Assembly: GCA_947179485.1 (NCBI GenBank)
Contig: OX359246.1
Coordinates: 31,124,001 to 31,188,000, forward strand
Direction: 5' to 3'
DNA length: 64,000 bases
Source of the DNA: Allacma fusca
Lineage: Eukaryota > Arthropoda > Collembola > Symphypleona > Sminthuridae
The position numbers and the translations under genes are program-made. Positions 3,598-55,489 of this stretch are shown piece by piece. Below the pieces are notes generated by a model, which saw nothing but the letters and a program-made list of their open reading frames with translations, searched no databases and was not told the origin of the DNA. How positions within the stretch are numbered: position 1 is the stretch's first letter; each line of letters opens with the position of its first letter.

Positions 3598-3905
3598 CAA
3601 ATTACAACGTCAAAATAAATGCATGGCATGAGCATACAATTTTTCATTGCAAAAATTACACCAGACTAAGAACCCAAAATACATAGTGACACTATATGCT
3701 ATTAATTACTTTCAAAGTGTGGAATCCCAGGGTTTGTGCATATTCCAAAGCCAAATTACAACGTCAAAATAAATGCATGGCATGAGCATACAATTTTTCA
3801 TTGCAAAAATTACACCAGACTAAGAACCCAAAATACATAGTGACACTATATGCTATTAATTACTTTCAAAGTGTGGAATCCCAGGGTTTGTGCATATTCC
3901 AAAGC
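3598..3905. repeat. Exact tandem duplication, 154 bp x 2
   Basis: Positions 3598-3751 and 3752-3905 read identically base for base. It is either a very recent duplication or an assembly artefact. No coding potential is seen in the unit. Confidence 0.95.
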
Positions 3906-7998: not shown

Positions 7999-8912
7999 CG
8001 TGTCCGGTCCACTGCCGCCCAAGCAACTGCCACAAGAGCAACTGCCACGCGGAAAACTGCCACAAGAACAACTGCCACAAAAAACTGCCACTTTACTACC
8101 TGCCAAACTTACCTACTGCCACTTGTGCAACTGCCACTTTTACCATCTGCCACACTTACCTACTGCCACTTGGGCAACTACCCGAAGCTCACTATCATTT
8201 TCGGAGCTTACACTGCATTTCCGGAGCTTACACTGCATTTCCGGAGTTTACACTGCATTTCCGGAGCTTACACTGCATTTCCGGAGTTTACACTGCATTT
8301 CCGGAGCTTACACTGCATTTCCGGAGTTTACACTGCATTTCCGGAGCTTACACTGCATTTCTGGGGCTTACTATCATTTTCAGAGCTTACTATCATTTCC
8401 GGAGCTTACAATCATTTCCGGAGCTTACTATCATTTCCGAAGCTTACTATCATTTCCGGAGCTTACTATCATTTCCGGAGCTTATTATCATTTCCGGAGC
8501 TTACTATCATTTCCGAAGCTTACTATCATTTCCGAAGCTTACTATCATTTCCGGAGCTTACTATCATTTCCGGAGCTTACTATCCTTTCCGGAGCTTACT
8601 ATCCTTTCCGGAGCTTACTATCATTTCCGGAGCTTACTACCATTTCCGGAGCTTACTATGCATTTCCGGAGCTTACACTGCATTTCCGGAGCTTACTATG
8701 CATTTCCGGAGCTTACTATCATTTCCGGGGCTGCTCTATACATATGGTTTTAGGTGGCAGATGGTAAAGTGGCAGTAGGTAATGTGGCAGTTGGTACGTT
8801 CAGGGTTTTCGAAGCGGGTGGCAATAATTATTGTGGCAGTTGTCCTTGTGGCAGTTCTCCGCGTGGCAGTTGTCCTTGTGGCAGTTGCTTGGGTGGCAGT
8901 AGACATGTAACC
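7999..8912. mobile_element. Foldback element built on ACTGCCAC repeats, 9-bp target duplication
   Basis: The left arm (about 8010-8175) repeats AACTGCCAC units and the right arm (about 8755-8905) carries the reverse complement. The order of variant spacers, such as CCCAAGC and GCGGA, is mirrored between the arms. The direct repeat TTAGTTTAG flanks it at 7990-7998 and 8913-8921. It is the same architecture as the element at 2005 with a different motif. It has no transposase. Confidence 0.75.
8185..8735 (+). repeat. Tandem repeat, 19-20 bp unit (TTACTATCATTTCCGGAGC)
   Basis: About 28 units make up the loop region of the foldback element. The first block uses a 20-bp variant (TTACACTGCATTTCCGGAGC) and the later block the 19-bp variant. 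The long overlapping frames here come from the repeat and are not genes. Confidence 0.9.
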
Positions 8913-13579: not shown

Positions 13580-15788
13580 TCAGTCAAAAGAAATTTGTTT
13601 CACCCCCGAGGGAGATTTGACATCAATACGGTAACTCAAGGCTTTGCTACGAATCCGACTGTAGGAGTTGTCAAAGGTGAAGATGTAGTCACCGGGTTGG
13701 TCACAAGTAATCGTACCCTCTTGCAAATTCACATGGGAATCCACTTTTCCCTTCTCAATGTACGCCTTTCCGTCCCGAGTCACCCCAAAAGAAATGTCAT
13801 ATTTTTCTGTCTTGAAAGCCCAGGATATGGTGCTGTTCCCTTCATCTACTCCACAATTCAAATCCAGCTTATCCCCTCCTGGGATGGTCACTGCCATAAA
13901 AACTGACTCGTCGTCATCTTCATCCTCTTCATCTATATATAGTGCGTGGAGAGTCTCACTATTGGTTCCCCCGAATTTAGGGGGTAGGATTCCTGCAGGC
14001 AGCTCTTTTAACATTTCCTTTTTGTAAATGTCAGGGTTTGTTCCGAAAATTTTAAATTTATTCGCAGTTTTCGGTCCTAGGATAGGTTTCACCAGAGTAA
14101 ATGCAGCCGAAAATGCCCGCCCGGCTAGAGATACATACATAATTATGGGAGGAGCAAATAGGAATAATTTTGTAAACGACAGATTTAAATACAATGGATT
14201 TTTTAAATTATGATTACTACCATTAGGAATGAAGAATCTTTTCACGGATTCGGGATGATAGGCTTCAAATTTCTTTGCGATTTGAAGCAAAGTATCTACA
14301 ACTGGAATCATTTTTAAATTTGAAGGATGATACACTTGAGTTCCATGGGACGATACGTTCTTAGCCAATTATAATAATGCTTACCTATTAAAGATGAAAA
14401 GGTGAGCAAGGATAGGTTGTAGGTATCAATGATGACAACAAATTGAGTGGTTGGGATGCCCTCTGGTGTCAATTTATCAATCATTGTGTTTTCGATTTCC
14501 TCGTACAGCCTATCCACATATCTGATAACATCACTGGCCAAACCGAGCTCGGAAAGTTTCCTGCAGTTCCATCTGTTGAATGGGACGAATATAACTGAAA
14601 AATAAGGAAATTGATGTGATGCGTATAGGAGATAAAGAATTTCGAATATTATCCCATGCGTTTTAAAAATTCCATTCAAATTTGACTAATTTTGATTTTG
14701 GTTATTGATTTGGTTACCGGGAGAATTTTCGCTATCTACTCCAAGGAACTGATAAGGAGCCATAGTTCTTACATCTTCCGGAGGTTCCCATAAAAGAATA
14801 TTGTCAATGTTATCCTTTCTCCGGTATTCCAGATACTGCAATAACAACAAAATAATTAGTCATAATGGACGTGCCGTTTCCTCAAAATTTGTTTCATTTT
14901 GATTATGATAGGTCCTCACGTTTGAAAGCGTTGCTTTAGCTCCGTCCAAATCATTGCCTCGAGCTTACCACAAATCCAAATACAAAGTCTCAAGTTAAAG
15001 TAGTAATGATTATAAATAATTAATAAAGTATCGCTGGCGTAAATTGAATTGTCAGATACGGTAAGTTACTTAAATAACCTCTAAGCCAGCGAATAAGGAA
15101 GTAATCAGATCGTTGAGATTCGGATAGTTCCAGGTCCGAGATATGGTTCCGAAACTAGATTTATAAGATTGGATTGAATTTGAAATTCTAATAAAATTCA
15201 ATTCTAAATTTGAAAGTAGATATTTAGTCATATGCATTCAAAAATAAATATCCGGAAGAACTTTTAGGGATCTACTTTTGCTTTTTACAGACGTTCCCCA
15301 TAAGTTCAATATGGTTATGCAAAAATATACCAGATTCATGTAAAGCTTCACCAGAAGTTCTTTATTACCAAAACTTCACCAGAAGTTCTTTATTACCAAA
15401 ACTTCACCAGAAGTTCTTTATTACCAAAACTTCACCAGAAGTTCTTTATTACCAAAACTTCACCAGAAGTTCTTTATTACCAAAACTTCCCAGAAGTTCA
15501 TTCTTGTCAAACTTTCACCAAAAGTTCAATTTTGCTTTGCAAAAATGCACCAGATGTTCAAGTTTGCTTAAAAAATGAAACCAAAAAGCAAAGTCATATT
15601 GCAAAACTCACCAGATGTTTACCTTTCTGTTGTATATATTTCCCCGGAAGTTCACTTTTACCCAGGAGTTCAGTTTGAGGCTGTCTCTCACTTACAACTA
15701 GTGACTAAACCATATCAATTTTTCGGGAAAATTAAATAATAGTTACCTTCAAAAGTATGGAATGTTCTTGATCATTAATAGTACCCAT
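13580..15788 (-). CDS. CRAL-TRIO/GOLD domain SEC14-like lipid-transfer protein, copy 1
   Basis: Seven exons give 371 aa: 15747-15788, 15079-15154, 14920-14963, 14718-14835, 14385-14594, 14221-14301 and 13580-14124. Residues about 5-65 form the CRAL-TRIO N helix region (FLIRWLRARGNDLDGAKATL), about 80-245 the lipid-binding CRAL-TRIO fold (ending LPPKFGGT), and about 270-365 a GOLD beta-sandwich (ITCDQPGDYIFTFDNSYSR). SEC14L-type proteins bind hydrophobic ligands and move or sense them at membranes; the ligand here is unknown. There is no signal peptide, so it is probably cytosolic. A near-twin with identical exon lengths lies 710 bp upstream at 16499-18602. An acidic run (DEEDEDDDE) sits between the two domains. 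Intron 1 carries a 28-bp tandem repeat. The start was chosen because it matches the exon 1 length of the twin. Confidence 0.9.
15340..15500 (-). repeat. Tandem repeat, ~28-bp unit containing ACTTCACCAGAAGTTC
   Basis: About five nearly identical units, each with an imperfect palindrome (ACTTC...GAAGT), lie in intron 1 of SEC14-like copy 1. Degenerate half-units extend to about 15690. Confidence 0.9.
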
Positions 15789-38440: not shown

Positions 38441-41171
38441 TTAATGCTTCTCATACGGGAAAACGTATCCACGGTTGCGATCACGAGAACATTTTCGAAC
38501 CTTGAATTGATCGTTAATTCTGATCCATTTATTGGCCACTAAAAGAATCAAGTTTTGCATAATTTATTAACAACAATACGAGCTTAAAATAAAGATAATT
38601 AAAAGGGGAGGAAATATACACATACATATATGTATATGTAATACGAAGAAATTATTTGTAAATGGTCACAGGCCACTGTAACTGAGAAGAATCGACATAT
38701 TTTTTAAAAATTAAAATTGCTATCACAAAATGCATCCATAATTTTAATATCATTGGACCCAATGACTCACCCCATTTTTCTCCTAACACAACGGGGCAAG
38801 CACCATGATAGGTTCTTAAGTCTGGGGATCCATCACTCAGTACATTGTGCCAAACAACGGCAGAACCTTTCACAGGTTTTGCAACAGCATTTGCCTCCGT
38901 GAATACTGTGTATCCTCCAAATTCTGGCTCTAATAGCTTTCAAATAAAGAAAAATAGCCTTATTTCACATTTCTTTAGAAACGTTCTTTTAGAATTCCTT
39001 TCAAATAATTATGTTCACATATAATTATACATAGAACATAAAGGTCGCGACCCTTCCTCCACGAACATTCTTAGGGCTGGGATCGAACTACAATAATACA
39101 AATTGAATCATAATTAATTAGTCCAGGCCATACAATGCTCTGCTGTAAATTTTATTTTGTAAACTCAGAGTGAACTAAAATTGTTTCCCACTTACGTAAT
39201 CAATATGAACATCATAATGACCACCGAAGGCATACGCTGCCACTTGGAGATCTTCCCCAGCTGTTTTAGCCGTCACACTCAGTCCCGTTGCTAATTGTAT
39301 TACTTCTGGAAGGATTTCCAAACCAGGCACTTCCCGTTCATCGAATTTCGCCCCTACGGATGTTCGAGTAGAAACGATTTTTTTTGCATTTATTCCAGAT
39401 CGTTTTGCATCTTTAACAGTAGACCGTTGAAAAGAATGTTTCACAAGATTTTCCAATATCTGAATTTTCCCATCAGTCAGAATATCATAAATTTGGTAGA
39501 TCTGAGGGTCTCTTGACAATAATTCCATTTTAAGGGGGGATATTGTCCAGTACAAGTTAACTTTAGTTTCGTAGAAGCACTTCATGGGATTTTCATCCTT
39601 CTTGCCATCCGCTATCTATAATCAATAACATCCCCACACAAATTACGAAGGTTGTTTCTCAATAAGTGGATAATTGTTCAAGAAAATTACTCCGTACCTT
39701 CAGAGAACCCTTTGAGCACATTTCCCAAAATCTTATACTAAATCCAAATTGGGATTTGGGGTACTTCGATACTTCCCTTCCTAAAAGCATCCGTTGAGAT
39801 TGGAGTGTATCCGATAGATTATTAAACCGTTGACGAGGCAAGAGCTTCCGGTTGTAAAAATGGGGGTCGAATTCCCAACGGTTATTGAAGAAATTGTCAT
39901 GCTGGATTAAAATACAATAAAATTGTAAAAGTTAATTAGTTAGTTAGCTTCAAGTTTAAAGGAAGTATACAATAAAATTATAACATTCCCAAACTATAGT
40001 GTTATTAAGGGTTAACAACTTTTTGTAAACATTTTAAACTGGGAATGAGCACTCAAGAGTTGTACCTTTTCAATGGATAATTGTAAAGCTGCTTGAATTA
40101 AGTTTCCATCCATTGTTCTATCTTGAGAAGATTTCATCAGGGCAACTTCCAGCCATTCGATGGATAATATATGGAAATTGTTACGTGATGCCCAAATCCC
40201 AAGTTGATAGCAATGCACAGTGTGTAATTTTGTTCCGGTGTTAATTCCCGAAATAACTCCATCTGCAATCTTTAATCTCACTGGTCACGTAAGTGCTCCT
40301 TAATTGTCTTGATTATATAAACATATGCTTCAATCGATATTTTAGCTCTATTTAAATGAAGGATTTTGAAGAATTTTGGAAAAAATTAACAATTATAAAT
40401 TGATAAGTAATGATTTACAGTTTTGGGATTCAAGTCGTAGACGTACTGAATGCGAAGTAGTCCGGACATGATTTCATGAACGTCATCCTGACTCAAGCGT
40501 TCGTTGCATGAAAGTGCTTCCATTATTATTTCCGACACACCTATAATAATTAAATTTTACGTCATATCAGTTTTAGTATTTAGTTTTCAAATTGAGACCC
40601 AATAATACATTGGAATTTCCATTTAACTACCAAATATTTACAGAAATTCTGCGTTTATTTTTTAAATAAGTTCCAAAGGTGTCAAACCTGATAACCCTTC
40701 TAATTTTTCCTTCAAATCCTGTAAGTGGTTAACGATCCTGTGCAGGAACCGATACGCTGCTATTGGGTTTCTTGTTATTGTCCTGACAAGTTTATCCTCA
40801 TTATCGTTATAATGACCCTCCAAATACATCACCGTATCTTTGAAATCTGCTATGTAGCTAAAATAACCGAAATTTTTTTGGCACATTTCAATTGATGTGT
40901 AAGATTTGAACGGAATTCAGAATGTACAATAATAGCTACTTATTTTAGAATCTTACGACAAGGCAAGATCCGCAACATATTTTGGCAGTAACTGCTTTCC
41001 CACGAGGTCCTCCAACTTCTGTATGACCTTAATATCAGACTCGACCAATGATTTTAACTCCGTAGGATTCAATACAATCCCTTGAGTTGGTAGGGTTTCA
41101 TTTCCATTACCAATGCTTAAAATTAGAATCAACTGGAAAAGAATTTCACTCACAGCCGTATGAAATTTCAT
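38441..41171 (-). CDS. P4HA: Prolyl 4-hydroxylase subunit alpha
   Basis: Hydroxylates prolines of procollagen-like chains in the endoplasmic reticulum with Fe(II), 2-oxoglutarate, O2 and ascorbate, normally as a tetramer with protein disulfide isomerase. Nine exons give 551 aa: 40957-41171, 40688-40857, 40419-40540, 40066-40269, 39698-39901, 39196-39615, 39031-39087, 38771-38936 and 38441-38538, all in phase. An N-terminal signal peptide (ILFQLILILSIG) is followed by the P4HA N-terminal domain (about 25-165), the TPR-like peptide-binding domain (about 170-240, IADGVISGI to LIQAALQLSIEK) and the dioxygenase domain. Iron ligands are His442 and Asp444 (HID) and His508 (YHGACPV); Lys518 (GEKWVANKW), ten residues after His508, should bind 2-oxoglutarate. 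Spacing matches animal P4HA. The exon 4 acceptor is unusual but is the only in-phase choice. Neighbouring the fasciclin gene, it suggests matrix biology, although proximity may be chance. Confidence 0.95.
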
Positions 41172-41866
41172 TTTGAGGAAGGGAAATCAGTAAAAACTTA
41201 GTTTTTCTCTATTTTCTAATGAACGTGGGAAGGTCGGGGTGATGCACAAAAAATACATATTCAGATTGTCTCGGATTTACTAATTATTATACGCAAGCAA
41301 TTTAATACCAGATTATTGAAGCATAATGGGAGTTACCTAACCAAAATGCCTAAATGCACTCTTATTAAGTATCATTGACGAAATACAATGCTCACACGTG
41401 TATGCATATAAATCAATGAGCAAATATTAATGAATGAGTTTGTGCCCAAATGAACTTTATATTGTAGGTGACCGCTTGAATGCATTTAAAAATTATTCTA
41501 ATATATATTATAAAAGCCTCCACATGTTGCAAGTAAGTAGGTTACAGACACATTGAAATGTTCCGTGGATCCAAAGTTCAATTACTAGTGCCATCCAAAA
41601 TCTTTGATTTACAAAACTTTCGAATGGAGTATTCCAATCTATATTTATTTCCACAAATACGAATATTTTTGCACTGCAGCAAAATATTTACTGCAACTTT
41701 CCATGAAGATGTTTTGATTACACAGTAAATTCAAACATAGGTAGCTGCATTGTAAGACGAAACTTTATGAGCTATTATTCTTAGGAGTCAATCATAAAAA
41801 ACTAAAAGGAATATGTGCATTTGTTTGGTAAGCAGAAGACTAGACCCTCAAATAGTCCAGATAACG
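41172..41866. other. Spacer between fasciclin 3' end and P4HA start
   Basis: Both genes read leftward; this must hold the P4HA promoter and the fasciclin 3' UTR. Nothing else recognised. Confidence 0.55.
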
Positions 41867-44800
41867 TTACTCGCCAGTGAATAACTGCAAAAACAAAACA
41901 AAAATAATTAAATTGAACATAGCTGAAGGCATCATTACAAGAAACTAAATTAAACTTACAGAATCAACAATATGTACAACTCCATTAGAAGCTGTCAAGT
42001 CGCAAGTTGTTATAGTAGCTGTACCAAAGCTGACCTCTCCCTTACTATCCCTGGACACCGGTACTCTGTAACCACTCAGGGTTTCCACTCGTTTGGGGTA
42101 GTACCATTGCTTAGGGAAAATCCCAGCGCAACATAAAGTTCCTGAAACCCCCAAAAAATTATTTATAAATTACGCATAATTACATATATACCTACAATTG
42201 GAAGCATCTTATATTACACTATAGAGTTATATTGCCAAATTTAAAGGACAAACCTGACATTATGTGAGACTTCACGAGCTTCTCTGCTGCTTTGCCAGGT
42301 GTAAGAAGCTCATCAAAGTCTGCCCTCGGTAATGCATAAAAGGCAGCATCTGTTGGAGCAAATAATGTCATGGGACCGTCCTCCCTCAACTTATCGATGA
42401 ATCCATTTTGCTACACACAAATCTCATTCATTAACTGATCCCAATTTACTGATGAATGCTATCCGGAAATTCTACTCACAGAAACGAGACGATTTAAAAC
42501 ACTGAAATCCGTCCTTGTCCTCAGAACTTGTGCAATATCAATATCCGCTGGGCTCAAAACCCTGTCAACTGTATGAATAATCCCATTACAAGCCATATCA
42601 TTGAGCTTAGTTAGACGTCCACATTGGGCTGTTACTTCGGATCCTGTTCCGACCGGGAGCTATTTTATAATTATATACATATAATAGCATGTAATTAATA
42701 TTTTTGCTAAAAATATTTGTTAAATAAATAGCTATAGCGTTTTAAGGGACAATACATGCAACAGCCCTTTTTTACAAATTAAATTACAAAATTTAAGCAT
42801 ACATAAATGCCGATCTCAATACTAAATATTCATATTTGCACTTACGTCTGAATACATATTAATTCGAATGGAAGCTCCCCGCAGATCCGTGGATAGTTTT
42901 TGCTCGTCCGTAAAATAGCAAGATTCTGTCCCAGGAGTGGCAATATGATACTTGAGAATTTTCTTAAGTTTCTGTGAAATTGTTGAAGGGAAAAAGTTGA
43001 GAATTTTTGCTATAACAGCTTACCTATATAAATGCTTGCAAATGCATATTGCCTAAATTACAACCCATACAATTACCTGGGGATCACGTTCGATCTCCTG
43101 CGTGAGGCTTTCGAAGGCTTCATTAGTCGGAGCGAATATGGTAGCGTTGCTGTATTGGTCTAGTGATATTCCAGATTGTTGAAGATATGTCATGAAAGTT
43201 GTGAGGTCCGCATTTTCGAGGCTTTTTGTAAGCGACCCGTCTGTGTAATTATATTGAGGTAATAATTAGCGTACGATATTACCAAATTTTTGTTTTAATA
43301 AACGTACCTTGGGGGGATAGTAAGACTCCTTCAATCACTTGGATGACACCATTGGTTGCCATGACATCGGCTGAAATGACCTTACTGCCATTAATAGACA
43401 GATCTTTGTTAGTGTGGCGCTCCACATTCATAATCCCATGATTTAAGTTACGGATTTGGCCACTCTTCAAAAATACGGACGTGCAAAATGTGACGGGCAC
43501 AACGTGATTGCGGATTATTCCTAAATTGACAGAGCAGCGTAGCTTTGACAGATGTTAACAAAAATGTGCCTTTAAAAAAGTGTTTAGTTTATTTACTTTG
43601 AAGGCATGGATCGCCAGTTTTTAATCTGGAGAGAAAATCCGGGCCTAGTTTGTTTAGAGCGTCATTTGTGGGAGCAAATAAGGTCAAGTGTTGATTGCTG
43701 TCTCTGAAAGTTTCTAGGAGATCGCTCTTCTGGATTACTGTTACAATTATTAAAAAATTGCATAGATTGTTATTTGTAGATTTCGATTATTTGGGGTTTT
43801 TTAATAGTGTAAATACTTTACGTGATAGAAATGTTGAGAGTCTTGTGTCTGTGGAGACGATGTCGAACAAAGACTGAGTCACTGGGGACATCATGCGGTC
43901 AATCATATGTACTACCCCGTTGGAGCATCTGTGATTCACGGAAGTCATTCTAATGCAGTTTGCCGTGTAGACTGTCTCCCCTTTAACTAGGAAATGGTTC
44001 ATGCGAATGACGCTGGCAGGATTTTCACTATAAATCATTTTTTCATCTACGAAATCTTGGGTAAAAATGTTCGTTTCAACCATGTGACTTAAAACAAAAT
44101 CACGGACGTCGATGTGATCATTCATTGCTAATGCTGTTTCAGTTACAGTTGTTGTGGGATCTGTGGGCCTTACAGGAGGACGATCGTAGGGACGTTCAGT
44201 GGAGCGTGCGAACGAAGGCTGGGTTGGAAATTCAGTGGTGCGTTCATCAGGACGCTGTTGCCTGCGTTCATCATGACGTTCGTAATTTGTACGTTCATGT
44301 GTACGATCATCGGGATGTTCTCGTGTGCGGTCCCCGGGACGTTCTTGTGTTCGGTCATCGGGACGTTCTCGTGTTCGGTAATCGGGACGTTCACGTGTTC
44401 GGTCATCGGGATGTTCTCGCGTTCGGTCATCGTGACGTACTGGGGTACGATCATCAGGACGTTCTGGGGTACGATCATCGTGACGTTCTGGGGTACGATC
44501 ATCGTGACGTTCTGGAGTACGATAATCGTGACGTTCTGAGGTACGATCATCGGGACGTTCTCGAGTTCGGTCATCGGGACGTTCTCGCGGTCGGTCATCG
44601 GGACGTTCTCGCGGTCGGTCATCGGGACGTTCTCGGGCGCGATCATCATGTCTTCTTTCATGGGTGCGATCTTCTGGACGTTCGTGTGTCCGATCATTGT
44701 GACGTTCTGGGGTACGATCATCGTGACGTTCTGGGGTACGATAATCGTGACGTTCTGAGGTACGATCATCGGGACGTTCTCGCGTTCGGTCATCTGGACG

Positions 44801-47800
44801 TTCTGGTGTGCGGTCATCGGGACGTTCTGGTGTTCGGTCATCGGGACGTTCTGGTGTGCGGTCATCGGGACGTTCTGGTGTTCGGTCATCGGGACGTTCT
44901 CGTGTTCGGTCATCAGGACGTTCTCGTGTTCGGTCATCGGGACGTTCTCGCGTTCGGTCAACGGGACGTTCTCGCGTTCGGTCATCGGGACGTTCTCGCG
45001 TTCGGTCATCGGGACGTTCTCGCGTTCGGTCATCGGGACGTTCTCGCGTTCGGTCAACGGGACGTTCTCGCGTTCGATCATCGGGACGTTCTCGCGTTCG
45101 GTCATCGGGACGTTCTCGCGGTCGGTCATCGGGGCGTTCTCGGGCGCGATCATCATGTCTTCTTTCATGGGTGCGATCTTCGGGACGTTCGTGTGTCCGA
45201 TCATTGTGACGTTCTGGGGTACGTTCATCGTGACGTTCTGGGGTATGATCATCGTGACGTTCTGGGGTATGATTATCGTGACGTTCTCGAGTACGATCAT
45301 CATGGCGTTCTTCGGGACGTTCATTTGTGCGGTCATTGTGACGTTCGGTTGTGTCGTCTTCATGTCGGCGATCATCTGGACGTTCGTTTGTGCGGTCTTC
45401 ATGTCGGCGATCATCCGGACGTTCGTGTGTGCGGTCTTCATGTCGGCGGTCATTGTGACGTTCGTTTATGCGGACATCGTGACGTTCGGTTGTGTGGTCT
45501 TCATGTCGGCGATCATCGTGACGTTCGTTTGTGCGGTCTTCGTGTCGGCGATCATCGTGACGTTCGTTTGTGCGATAATCAGGCTGTTCATATGCGCGAT
45601 TAGACCTTTCATTTGCATGGTCATCAGGACGTTCTTCTGTACGCTCATCTGTTCGTTCTCTCGAGCTTCTTTCATAAGGAAGTTCAAACGTACGTTCATC
45701 GGCTCGTTCCTCAGGTCGTTCAGTAGGAGTCTCATAAGGGTGCTCATAACGACGTTCATCCTGGCCATGTCTATCCGCGCGGCCGTAAGGATTCTGAGAT
45801 GCTGGGTATTCAGAAGGTCTCGCTGTGGGGTTTTCAGAAAGCCGTTCCCCCGGATTTTCTTCGGGGTGCTCGATCGATTCTTCCGTGCTTTCCGATTCAC
45901 CATTCATCCCAAGCATATTACGCTCCCATTCGTCGTTTCCAAAATCCATCACCATTTCCTCAGTCCCGCGATGAGAGCAAGACGCAGACGAGAAGCAACG
46001 CGTTCCTCGGTACACAACGGCGCCACTACTTTCATCACCTTCACTTAAGTCCGGCAAAGCCAAATCCTGACTTCGTCGGATCCTTCTCCTGCTCCTTACC
46101 GATGCTGATAGTGCTTCCTGTATTCAAATATCTTTCAAATATTACAAAATTTTTCAAAACAAAAGCACACGGTAATGCTAGATAATATTTCTAATTTATT
46201 TATACTCTCGACTTATGCTTGGACAAAAAGTGTTGGACAGCCTCGTCCGTCGGAACAAATACTGTCATAGTTTCAGTTTCCAACTTTTGAGTCAAATTTG
46301 CGGACCTAAGGAGTCGCAAAAACTCTGTAGCACCCAAATCCTCAATCGTTTTTCCCACGGTATTGAAACTACCTTAAAAGAAAAAAAATATATTTTTATG
46401 TATTTACGTAAAAATAACTTCCCTTGGCCTTACTTCTTTGACACTCCTGGGCCCTGGCGTTAAGTGTGAATCCAGAGCAGCATTCGTATGTTGTGATAAG
46501 GACTGTTGTCACTCTCGCGCCTTCTGTCCGATTTACGCATGTGCGCTTGTTCCCAGCTTCTTGGCAAGTGGAACCTTGGATAGGGGATCTTCGGTAATCA
46601 GCCCTTTGATCGCCTTGAGTTACCGAGTTGGAACTACTGGGTAAATTTTCGTCGCTCTCCAACCGCTTCGTACACACGTTGGACCTTAAAAAAAAGATCA
46701 CCTTAGCCGATTTAAAGACCCAGCTTTAATCAATTACATTAGCTTAGGAGATATCACTAACCCCTTCCACCATGGTGTTTGTGCAGGGAGGAAATAGTTC
46801 CAGCCAGGGTAGCTGCTTCCTGTAACCACAGTGAGTTTAAATAATCAAAACGTATATCATTTACAGTACTTGGAACTATAAACATAAATAGGAGTTTGTC
46901 GTCACAATTTCTCCAAAGCCATGTATTCTTTCAAGACCAGTATACAATCCCCAAGGTTCCTGGAAATAATTAAATCTGTTACATTTATTTTTCGAAGCTA
47001 CTTCGAATAATTACTTGCGTCAATGTATCCTTGACGAGTAACCAGGAAAGGGGCTCCATGGACCACGGTTGGGTATCTTCTAATTCCAGGGAGTCGATAT
47101 TGTGGATAGCGTCCGGACTCAACAGCTAGAAGATCCCCAGGATGTCTTTCCTGCGAAGGAATTAGGAAAAGAAACCATTATAAAAAATGTAATTTATATA
47201 ATTACTATAATAAACATATAAATTACACAAATTTATTAGCGTAAAATCGTAGAGTCCAATTCTATAAGTGAAATGGGTTTCAAGGTCAAGTTTTGGGCTA
47301 AAACTGGATGACGGGGATAAATTTAGTCGGGAAGAGTTTAGAAGATTCCCTTGAGATGGCAGACTTTGAACTAACGACAGCTCGCAAATACTTACACAAA
47401 AATTGTCAAATTATTTCCCACGCACAGGAAGCGGAAATCTTTGTCTATTACCAGCCATTTTAGTGCTCTTTGCAATGCGCTAAAAACTAACATGTGACAC
47501 GTGAATACAAAGCTGCGGACATCAATTAGAATATAATTTCTTTTAAATCTCATTCCCGTGACCTGCTTTTGAAAGTCAAATTGTTCGTGGGAAAATTATT
47601 TTTAGTAAGTTTTAGGATTGTTTTCCTTTTTAACCGAATTTTTAAATGCAACCTTCAATTCAAATGAAAAAAATTTGATTGGTAGGAAAGTCCTGGGTCG
47701 AAAAGAAAGAAATAGTAAGGCAAATCTTCAAAGCAATTCTTTGCAAACAAGGCAAATTCTTGTACATGTCGGTGTCATATTTAAGCACAATAAAAACTCA

Positions 47801-48209
47801 TTTAAACAAAATCATAATGGAAGGATATTTTTACACTGAAGTCCACATGGTATCTCAGGGCTCCATTTCCGTTGACAGCGCTTGCTCCTCCAGAGTAGGG
47901 ATTATTTCCACCCCCAATAAATCTGCAAGGGAACCGGACGTATTTTAGTCAAATTTGTTTCAAATCTCATTCAACTGTTAAAATGTGCTATTTGACAAAG
48001 TTATGAGACAATAACGTTGTACTGATTGTAAATTTAAATCGTAATAAAATCCCTTACTGAACTAGTGGGCCTTGAACTCCGTGCTGACCAGGGGATGACT
48101 GAAAAGACTGAGGAGTGAATCCATTTTGAAACAATACATTTGGGGATGTAGGAAGAGCCTCAATTGAGCCAAATAGTAAGAATGAGAGAAAAACTATTAA
48201 TTTTTCCAT
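41867..48209 (-). CDS. EMI plus four-FAS1 secreted protein (periostin/TGFBI/midline-fasciclin type) with giant charged insert
   Basis: Fifteen in-phase exons give 1442 aa: 48058-48209, 47835-47922, 47015-47150, 46762-46819, 46434-46684, 46206-46372, 43822-46117, 43597-43737, 43308-43520, 43077-43240, 42846-42971, 42480-42659, 42254-42410, 41960-42141 and 41867-41884. Features in order: signal peptide ([15 protein letters not shown]); Gly/Tyr/Pro-rich linker; Cys-rich EMI-like domain, about 148-228 (TTYECCSGF); first half of FAS1-1, about 229-284 ([14 protein letters not shown]); an Arg/Asp/Glu/Pro/His-rich insert, about 300-945; second half of FAS1-1 ([11 protein letters not shown]); then FAS1-2, -3 and -4, each with an (F)AP-T-(N/D)-A motif and N-G-(V/I)-(I/V)-(H/Q) near its end. 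FAS1 proteins mediate cell-matrix adhesion. The insert is open, in frame and absent from typical family members. The N-terminal exon chain is less certain than the rest; one possible extra exon (about 46900-46959) breaks the phase and was left out. Confidence 0.85.
44270..45590 (-). repeat. Coding 24-bp tandem repeat (ERPDDRTR unit)
   Basis: About fifty 24-bp units encode variants of the octapeptide ERPDDRTR ([25 protein letters not shown]) inside exon 7 of the fasciclin gene. Looser units extend to about 45800. A higher-order duplication is visible: the distinctive [20 protein letters not shown] block occurs at about 44610-44690 and again about 0.5 kb away near 45120-45200. Because the unit is a multiple of three, all six frames stay open for long stretches; only the minus-strand frame joining both FAS1 halves is the gene. 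Confidence 0.93.
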
Positions 48210-54507: not shown

Positions 54508-55489
54508 ATGAATCAATCAGTAATTATTTCAAGTTTTTTTATTTTCCTGTGCTTACATCAAACTCCGGCCCAAAACCTGTCTAAATCAGAGCCAGCGAAA
54601 GATCCAAAAAGGTTTGTGTTCCCCTTTGATTAAAGTTGGATTTCAGAAGATTGGAACATTTATTTTGATTTTTGGGACATGTTTACGCATATGTACGTAT
54701 ACGTGGTAAGGAATGTGAAGATATAATTTGAGTACGTATTTTTTAGGCTTTGCCCACAAGGTCACTTGTATTTCAATGGGACTCGAACGTGCTATATTGC
54801 AGGGGAGAAGGGTCCCTGCCAAGGGTCATTGATGGCTGTAGAATCCCCTAATAATGATGAATTTGGAGACTGTACATGTAAAATTTTCTCACATTTGGGT
54901 TTGCATTGTCAAACAAGACCTGCAGTGCATTGGAGTGACTCTCGCTGTTATTTCATATTTGACCAGGTAATAAATAACACATAAGGCTCCTGCTGTACTG
55001 ATGAGGTCCTCCTCCCGCAGTACTTAGATTTAAAAAATCTGAGATTTCTGAAGAACCATAATTTTAATAATTGCTAAATCTGAATTTATAAATTGACAAC
55101 TCACGGTTGAATTGTAGGGTCCGTGTCGAACTGACGAATGGCTTGCCGTTAGTCCTTGGGCTCCTCCAAAATGTGAACAAATCCCATGCCTGGACTTGTA
55201 CCATGCTCAAACTCCCTTGAATTATTCCCGTTATGAGGAAGCAAGTGCAGTTTTTGTGTTTGGGTTCAAGAACAGTTGTTACATCACGGGGACCCAGGCA
55301 TTCTGTCCTAAAGGTCACTTAGCTGTTTTTGCTGCCGGGAGTGACATCCCCAGTTGTAGGAAGCGAAAGGACATTTGCTACAATTTGCCTTTTTATACCC
55401 ATCCAGAAGCTGGGACCTACGAATGTGAAGATGGGACTGAGAGTGATGGTCATGGAGGTTGCCTGCCCTCCATGTCTGACTCTTACTGA
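54508..55489 (+). CDS. Secreted cysteine-rich protein, DUF4789 type
   Basis: Three exons (54508-54611, 54747-54966 and 55118-55489) give 231 aa. Residues 1-22 form a signal peptide (SFFIFLCLHQTPAQ). The mature part is cysteine-rich, and its two halves share a pattern: LCPQGHLYFNGTRTCYIAGEKGPC in the first and NSCYITGTQAFCPKGHLAV in the second. CPxGH-L and GPCxxxEWLAV are characteristic of the arthropod DUF4789 family, whose function is unknown. It is probably extracellular and disulfide-stabilised. Exon phases agree (AG|G, then phase 0). It stands alone between two long gene-free intervals. The family call is made by motif recognition only. Confidence 0.8.

What the first reader, a model, noticed from the sequence alone, without database searches (positions are those of the whole stretch)
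43822..46117. A ~640-residue charged tandem-repeat insert sits inside the first FAS1 domain
Seen: the exon upstream encodes only the first half of a FAS1 domain, and the second half resumes after about 650 codons of [12 protein letters not shown] repeats in one open frame. Known: periostin/TGFBI/midline-fasciclin proteins carry an EMI domain and four FAS1 domains without such an insert. Inferred: an extended, zwitterionic disordered loop projects from an adhesion module and could bind polyanions or other matrix components, or the tract may be a fast-expanding coding minisatellite.
Basis: partly seen in the sequence, partly recalled or inferred. Interest (0 to 1): 0.85.

Follow-up and report, generated by a model that had tools for sequence, protein, structure and literature searches.

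The report
Charged repeat loop inside matrix protein
An invertebrate-type gene for a secreted matrix protein of the periostin family carries a roughly 650-residue, mostly repetitive charged stretch in the middle of its first folded domain, probably a long floppy loop grown from a coding minisatellite; an unusual variant of a familiar protein rather than a new kind of system.

Summary
On the minus strand a hand-built 14-exon model (1,437 codons, no stop, 13 of 13 introns GT-AG) encodes a TGFBI/periostin/midline-fasciclin-type protein with four FAS1 domains. Exon 6 matches FAS1 profile positions 3-44; exon 7 (46117-43822, exactly the finding) resumes at 48-123. Between lie about 650 residues: Arg 25%, Asp+Glu 31%, no lysine; 491 form the repetitive tract. 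The open frame alone is weak evidence. Better: the GAACGT anchor keeps one codon phase (50 of 50), codon-position bias is modest but present, and skipping exon 7 gives a stop. In-frame cryptic introns removing the repeat are not excluded. The unit with up to 3 mismatches occurs 22 times in the assembly, all in this exon. Three other FAS1 exons scanned are uninterrupted. Best reading: a disordered, nearly neutral polyampholyte loop grown by minisatellite expansion, with a furin-type motif at its edge. Polyanion binding is untested. No transcripts, orthologs or species name were available. New variant of a known kind.

The parts
48058..48209 (-). Exon 1: start codon and probable signal peptide ([18 protein letters not shown])
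   Evidence: Splice model; signal peptide judged by eye, no predictor run
47835..47922 (-). Exon 2
47015..47150 (-). Exon 3
46762..46819 (-). Exon 4
46434..46684 (-). Exon 5: cysteine-rich EMI/CROPT-like segment (SNVC...YECCSGF...CQ)
   Evidence: weak colinear alignment with periostin 5yjg and TGFBI; no EMI match in Pfam
46206..46372 (-). Exon 6: first half of FAS1-1
   Evidence: Pfam Fasciclin profile 3-44
43822..46117 (-). Exon 7: six FAS1-side codons, the whole insert, the second half of FAS1-1
44150..46099 (-). Insert, residues 291-940 (650 aa); boundaries chosen by me
46073..46096 (-). RSRRRIRR: holds the only two R-x-[RK]-R motifs of the modelled protein, at the N-terminal edge of the insert
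45977..45997 (-). CFSSASC: the only two cysteines of the insert, in its non-repetitive N-terminal part
44237..45709 (-). Repetitive charged tract, residues 421-911; 8-residue unit consensus ERPDDRTR, 13-residue variants towards its N-terminal end
44161..46038 (-). Best-looking of several possible in-frame cryptic introns (GTGATG...CCCACAG, 1,878 nt) that would remove the repeat; not supported, not excluded
43597..43737 (-). Exon 8: first part of FAS1-2
43308..43520 (-). Exon 9: rest of FAS1-2
43077..43240 (-). Exon 10: first part of FAS1-3
42846..42971 (-). Exon 11: FAS1-3
42480..42659 (-). Exon 12: end of FAS1-3, start of FAS1-4
42254..42410 (-). Exon 13: FAS1-4
41960..42141 (-). Exon 14: end of FAS1-4; the terminal exon downstream was not identified

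Best explanation
A real coding insertion in a secreted matrix protein of the TGFBI/periostin/midline-fasciclin type. A 24-bp minisatellite just inside the 5' end of an exon, next to an intron, expanded in frame so that about 650 residues now sit in the FAS1-1 loop between the 'FVPTDEA' segment and the 'DFVLSHMV' helix. The FAS1-1 fold closes around the loop (inferred), which stays disordered, hydrated and electrically almost neutral. It most likely acts as a long polyampholyte spacer or brush beside the N-terminal cysteine-rich module, changing how densely the protein packs or aggregates (inferred; I give 35-40% to any selected function of this kind). Shown: gene model, split domain, composition, absence of the unit elsewhere in the assembly at up to 3 mismatches. 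Inferred: transcription, translation, disorder in the cell, mechanical role.
For: One continuous 1,437-codon reading over 14 exons; I placed the borders by eye, and 13 of 13 introns read GT-AG. Profile 3-44 before and 48-123 after the insert. Exon 7 GC 0.525 against 0.296 over the 13 introns. GAACGT, the unit's start, lies in the coding phase in 50 of 50 places in the exon. Among the 43 eight-codon units (12 units of other lengths left out), third codon positions hold 91 of 161 variant copies. Relative to the consensus, 15 of 20 possible synonymous changes are seen against 24 of 52 replacement or stop-type changes (Fisher one-sided p 0.025). No stop in 491 repeat codons although 148 single changes would make one. 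Skipping exon 7 gives TAA as the very next codon. Charged fraction 0.63 and kappa 0.022, below 200 of 200 shuffles. Three of three other FAS1 exons scanned lack the insert.
Against: No transcript evidence. Repeat copies are not independent; by distinct states the third-position excess is 18 of 39, p 0.066. The antisense frame whose third positions coincide scores alike (0.58 against 0.63). Several in-frame GT/AG pairs could remove the repeat. Unit lengths are whole codons by construction, as I cut units from the protein. Disorder rests on composition and a single-sequence model with mean pLDDT 36.9. The match of the cysteine-rich segment plus first FAS1 half to periostin is weak (best stretch i-E 3.3). 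No ortholog was available, so nothing shows that the insert is conserved.
Confidence: 0.6

Rival explanations
1. Neutral expansion: the loop tolerates a turning-over minisatellite, its length is arbitrary, and the insert has no selected role beyond keeping frame and solubility. Shares the coding insertion with the best explanation but not the function.
For: Neighbouring equal-length units are 71-100% identical, and a stretch of units recurs 21 units further on, as unequal exchange would give. Tandem repeats that encode disorder are a trend of long internal exons (abstract of PMC12457776). Two other FAS1 genes in this assembly have unrelated long repeat frames.
Against: Modest sign of codon-level constraint. 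Charge mixing is tighter than in 200 of 200 shuffles, though the repeat unit itself explains that.
Confidence: 0.35
2. The repeat is spliced out of most transcripts through a cryptic intron within exon 7, so the usual protein has an ordinary FAS1-1.
For: Donor AAG|GTGATG (7 of 9 consensus positions) and acceptor CCCACAG are in matching phase, and removing 44161-46038 keeps frame. Two other donors of equal score and four further acceptors have the same phase.
Against: That stretch is GC-rich and open throughout, unlike the gene's 13 modelled introns (GC 0.296 in all, 61-684 nt). The acceptor's pyrimidine fraction is only 0.57. Codon-position bias within it.
Confidence: 0.12
3. The insert makes FAS1-1 a cleavable, two-chain module: a furin-type protease cuts at RSRRRIRR and the polyampholyte becomes a new N-terminal tail on the rest of the protein, altering aggregation or dimerisation. 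Compatible with the best explanation.
For: The only R-x-[RK]-R motifs in 1,437 residues lie within residues 292-299. The Arg-rich tract holds 3 RxxR against a shuffled mean of 40 (minimum 26 of 1,000) and 8 dibasic pairs against 41 (minimum 28), so such a cut would spare the tract. Drosophila MFAS is essential for dense-core granule aggregation (PMC12361456, passages).
Against: No cleavage data. The rarity of RxxR follows from the spacing of the repeat unit and need not be selected. Basic runs can be fortuitous.
Confidence: 0.2

Closest known systems
TGFBI, periostin and Drosophila midline fasciclin (MFAS)
   Same: Cysteine-rich N-terminal module, then four FAS1 domains; colinear with TGFBI 158-628 (E 3.7e-63). 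That insect MFAS has four FAS1 domains is from PMC6032426 (passages).
   Different: 650-residue insert inside FAS1-1; the two TGFBI chains printed residue by residue and the periostin and TGFBI chains show no counterpart. No RGD in the modelled protein, whose last exon is missing.
Teleost periostin 13-residue repeat exon (PMC2824660, passages)
   Same: An exon of the same protein family lengthened by in-frame tandem repeats that do not run into the introns.
   Different: C-terminal, outside FAS1; 13-residue unit PSITKVTRVIEGE predicted as beta strands. Here an 8-residue charged unit inside FAS1-1. No sign that the repeats are homologous, not tested further.
Long internal exons built by tandem repeats encoding disorder (PMC12457776, abstract)
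   Same: Long internal exon, tandem repeat, disorder-type composition.
   Different: There a general trend over eight eukaryotes; here the repeat splits a folded domain.
Nacrein/N66 carbonic anhydrases with NG repeats (PMC6599672, passages)
   Same: Secreted matrix protein that combines a folded domain with a low-complexity repeat of variable length.
   Different: Other fold and chemistry; the passages put the NG repeat at the C-terminal end, so this is a loose analogy only.

Membership tests
TGFBI/periostin/MFAS family | Four FAS1 domains | tested here: met
   Pfam Fasciclin: the exon 6 half, plus four stretches in the post-insert protein (second half of FAS1-1, then FAS1-2, -3, -4). FAS1-1 is split and the terminal exon was not found.
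TGFBI/periostin/MFAS family | N-terminal EMI/CROPT cysteine-rich domain | tested here: inconclusive
   No EMI match in Pfam at E<=1. Periostin 5yjg: sequence E 0.00071 summed over weak stretches, the one covering residues 60-132 with i-E 3.3. YECC motif by eye.
TGFBI/periostin/MFAS family | Colinear similarity along FAS1-1 to FAS1-4 | tested here: met
   5nv6 residues 158-628 aligned, E 3.7e-63 (query with most of the insert left out).
TGFBI/periostin/MFAS family | Signal peptide | tested here: inconclusive
   Hydrophobic N terminus of exon 1 by eye.
TGFBI/periostin/MFAS family | Uninterrupted FAS1-1 (usual in known members, not a formal requirement) | tested here: not met
   650 residues between profile positions 44 and 48.
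Teleost-type periostin repeat exon | 13-residue repeat C-terminal to FAS1-4 | tested here: not met
   8- and 13-residue charged units inside FAS1-1; paper passages.
Tandem-repeat long internal exon encoding disorder | Long internal exon with tandem repeats | tested here: met
   2,296 nt against 58-251 nt for the other 13 exons; arrays.
Tandem-repeat long internal exon encoding disorder | The repeat encodes disorder | tested here: inconclusive
   Composition fits; model without secondary structure in residues 1-670 but mean pLDDT 36.9.

The most novel reading that the evidence does not exclude
The insert turns a FAS1 domain into a tunable, protease-gated module: minisatellite length sets the size of a neutral polyampholyte brush, and a furin-type cut at its edge releases or re-orients it, so that variation in repeat number would tune aggregation of a midline-fasciclin-type protein in granules or matrix.
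Probability: 0.1. Interest if true: 0.75.

Novelty: new variant of a known kind. Interest (0 to 1): 0.45.

Why it matters
A 650-residue stretch inside a folded adhesion domain tests how much disorder a FAS1 fold can take and still close, and would give a natural length series if the array is polymorphic. The fly relative MFAS drives aggregation in secretory granules and human TGFBI forms deposits in corneal dystrophy (PMC12361456, passages), so a natural variant with a long charged loop could help show what limits such aggregation. How often repeats sit inside rather than between domains was not surveyed here.

Tried and rejected
Exon skipping as the usual state: rejected for a working protein, since exon 6 joined to exon 8 reads ...KSR then stop. 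Repeat as a separate gene: not supported; both FAS1 halves join through one frame with matching splice phases. Repeat as a dispersed sequence: not supported. The DNA unit with up to 3 mismatches has 22 matches in the assembly, 22 of 22 in this exon; the non-repetitive flank matches only itself, 1 of 1. At protein level, 81 matches at E<=10 were listed (150 of 183 candidates scored); the seven best lie in this exon, then come two readings of one stop-laden satellite on C9 (best E 2.4e-11), a Ser/Thr/Asp/Glu-rich frame on C8 (E 1.2e-6) and weaker ones. The C9 satellite also has a 24-bp unit and shares 15 of 24 bases and a 9-base run with this unit in the best register; 5 and 6 of 5,000 shuffles reach that, uncorrected for its having been picked from a whole genome. 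It is a single local array (12 matches, 12 of 12 on C9). A common origin is left open.

Codon selection: suggestive only. The synonymous differences inside the four units common to the two repeat blocks (2 of 2) are no test, because I located the blocks by those units' protein identity; the flanking units differ by replacements as well. A candidate exon at about 46959-46876 was left out of the model because joining it gave a stop or a wrong phase (by eye). A viral-contig scan with a post-insert piece found no relative, and an exact 29-base repeat pattern had 0 matches in genome contigs; those collections are not animal genomes and say little. Springtail identity: a DIOX_N search, meant as a lead to isopenicillin N synthase (reported from Collembola, listing), gave 9 matches; I followed only the best one, and it resembles an ethylene/succinate-forming-type enzyme far more than isopenicillin N synthase (E 2.6e-142 against 5.7e-29) and has no NCBIfam match, so this settles nothing. 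Literature: no insert inside a FAS1 domain was described in the titles and abstract openings listed by searches (open-licence papers only; some lists were cut at 15 or 20). No fold search was run, because the model was too poor.
Full report
What is there. The window lies in a 392.7-Mb, 91-contig assembly of an unnamed organism. On the minus strand, 48209 to 41960, fourteen exons join into one frame of 1,437 codons without a stop. I placed the borders by eye from the three-frame translation, so the model is a fit and not a blind prediction; 13 of 13 introns read GT-AG. The order is: hydrophobic N terminus, a cysteine-rich segment with a YECC motif, four FAS1 domains. The terminal exon was not found. 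Exons are numbered in the order; the repeat is in exon 7.

The split domain. Pfam Fasciclin covers profile 3-44 in the exon before the insert and 48-123 in the tail of exon 7. The cysteine-rich segment and first half align in order with periostin 60-132, but weakly (i-E 3.3 for that stretch). From the insert's C-terminal edge on, the protein aligns with TGFBI 158-628 at E 3.7e-63. The insertion point is therefore the loop between FVPTDEA...SKHKSREALSAS and [14 protein letters not shown]. In FAS1-3 of the same protein an intron falls within about seven alignment columns of the intron before exon 7, about where the insert begins. The insert starts six codons after its own 3' splice site, which suggests, without proof, that it grew from the 5' edge of the exon.

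The insert. Residues 291-940: Arg 25%, Asp 16%, Glu 15%, Pro 10%, Thr 10%, His 6%, no Lys, against 30 Lys in the other 787 residues. The absence of lysine may follow from codon make-up: the repeat uses 134 CGN and 8 AGR arginine codons, and CGN is two changes from AAR. The tract 421-911 has 63% charged residues, net charge per residue -0.05, and kappa 0.022 by my simplified calculation, below 200 of 200 shuffles (minimum 0.072). RSRRRIRR stands at the N-terminal edge of the insert. RxxR (3 against a shuffled mean of 40) and dibasic pairs (8 against 41) are rare in the tract, a consequence of the unit's spacing.

Is it coding? The long frame alone does not prove it, since the period is a multiple of three and other frames are open for hundreds of codons. 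In favour: GAACGT lies in the coding phase in 50 of 50 places in the exon; variation is concentrated at third positions (91 of 161 variant copies; n = 43 eight-codon units of 55, the 12 of other lengths left out); synonymous excess p 0.025; GC 0.525 against 0.296 in introns; skipping exon 7 gives an immediate stop. Against: copies are not independent, 18 of 39 distinct states gives p 0.066, and the antisense frame with matching third positions scores alike. Whole-codon unit lengths are no evidence, because I cut units from the protein. Several in-frame GT/AG pairs inside the exon, the best-looking being 46038-44161, leave a cryptic intron open.

Turnover. Neighbouring equal-length units are 71-100% identical. 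A stretch of units recurs 21 units further on; its four central units, by which I found it, differ by two synonymous changes, and its flanks also by replacements. TRF places this repeat's arrays wholly inside the exon. This fits a coding minisatellite that has turned over recently.

Comparison within the genome. The 24-base unit with up to 3 mismatches has 22 matches in the assembly, all in this exon; the reversed control has 0. The non-repetitive flank matches only itself. A single 24-bp non-coding satellite on C9 shares a 9-base run with the unit; whether it is related is open. A search with the cysteine-rich segment and first FAS1 half finds this gene and, barely, the first FAS1 exon at C1 3.59 Mb (E 0.093). 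That exon, the similar one at C1 3.52 Mb and one on C12 are uninterrupted (profile 3-93, 3-90 and 3-97): 3 of 3 scanned, out of 11 FAS1 matches outside this gene. A YECC-type segment precedes the first; the second was seen only in part. Two FAS1 genes at C1 27.16-27.18 Mb have their own 824- and 853-codon frames rich in Pro/Gly and ANANAQ-type repeats upstream of FAS1. Long repeat exons thus recur among FAS1 genes here, with other sequences and positions.

Structure. AlphaFold2 on exon 7 alone, single sequence, gave no helix or strand in residues 1-670 and some in the FAS1 half, at mean pLDDT 36.9. This agrees with disorder but is weak.

Interpretation. The best-supported reading is a disordered polyampholyte loop in the first FAS1 domain of a secreted matrix protein, made by in-frame minisatellite expansion. 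Its role is inferred: a spacer or brush, perhaps limiting the aggregation seen for the fly relative MFAS (PMC12361456, passages). Neutral expansion is a serious rival. Furin-type cleavage at the insert edge is an attractive, untested addition. Polyanion binding has no support beyond arginine content.

Known context. Teleost periostin has another in-frame repeat exon in the same family, at the C terminus (PMC2824660, passages). The FAS1 review (PMC6032426, passages) mentions low-complexity regions beside or between FAS1 domains; the passages shown name none inside one. Repeats encoding disorder are a recognised trend of long internal exons (PMC12457776, abstract). I therefore call it a new variant of a known kind.

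Limits. No transcripts, no orthologs from other species, no named organism, a hand-built gene model and a single-sequence structure model.

Noticed in passing
L012:4053-6527 (-) and L013:164-2725 (+), assembly C1 27.16-27.18 Mb: Two neighbouring FAS1 genes with 824- and 853-codon frames of Pro/Gly-rich and ANANAQ-type repeats upstream of FAS1; no Pfam match at E<=0.01 in these frames.
   Followed up: partly
L009:5528-5911 (+): The periostin-like paralog at C1 3.59 Mb appears to end in a Gly/Asn/His-rich tail after its last FAS1 piece.
   Followed up: no
L023, assembly C9 36.3187-36.3190 Mb: A local 24-bp satellite with stops in frame shares 15 of 24 bases and a 9-base run with the window's repeat unit; not corrected for genome-wide selection.
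   Followed up: partly
window 38652-41186 (-): The next gene on the same strand looks like a prolyl 4-hydroxylase alpha subunit: of five pieces scanned, one matches P4Ha_N (E 4.2e-4) and one 2OG-FeII_Oxy_3 (E 0.014), both below the curated cut-offs; one gives unrelated weak matches and two none.
   Followed up: partly
window 46876-46959 (-): A protein-like open stretch ([26 protein letters not shown]) in an intron does not fit the chosen frame; possibly an alternative exon.
   Followed up: no
window 55118-55486 (+): An open frame matches DUF4789 (E 1.8e-6, above the curated cut-off).
   Followed up: no
L030:1489-2490 (+), assembly C8 38.23 Mb: A 334-residue intronless 2-oxoglutarate oxygenase frame, best PDB match an ethylene/succinate-forming-type enzyme (E 2.6e-142); horizontal acquisition or contamination not tested.
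   Followed up: partly
window 8182-8732, 15342-15527 and 3598-3905: Tandem arrays of 19 and 28 bp and a perfect 154-bp tandem duplication.
   Followed up: no
L025, assembly C8 47.64 Mb: A frame of 1,557 codons with Ser/Thr/Asp/Glu repeats and a Lys/Gly/Asn-rich part.
   Followed up: no
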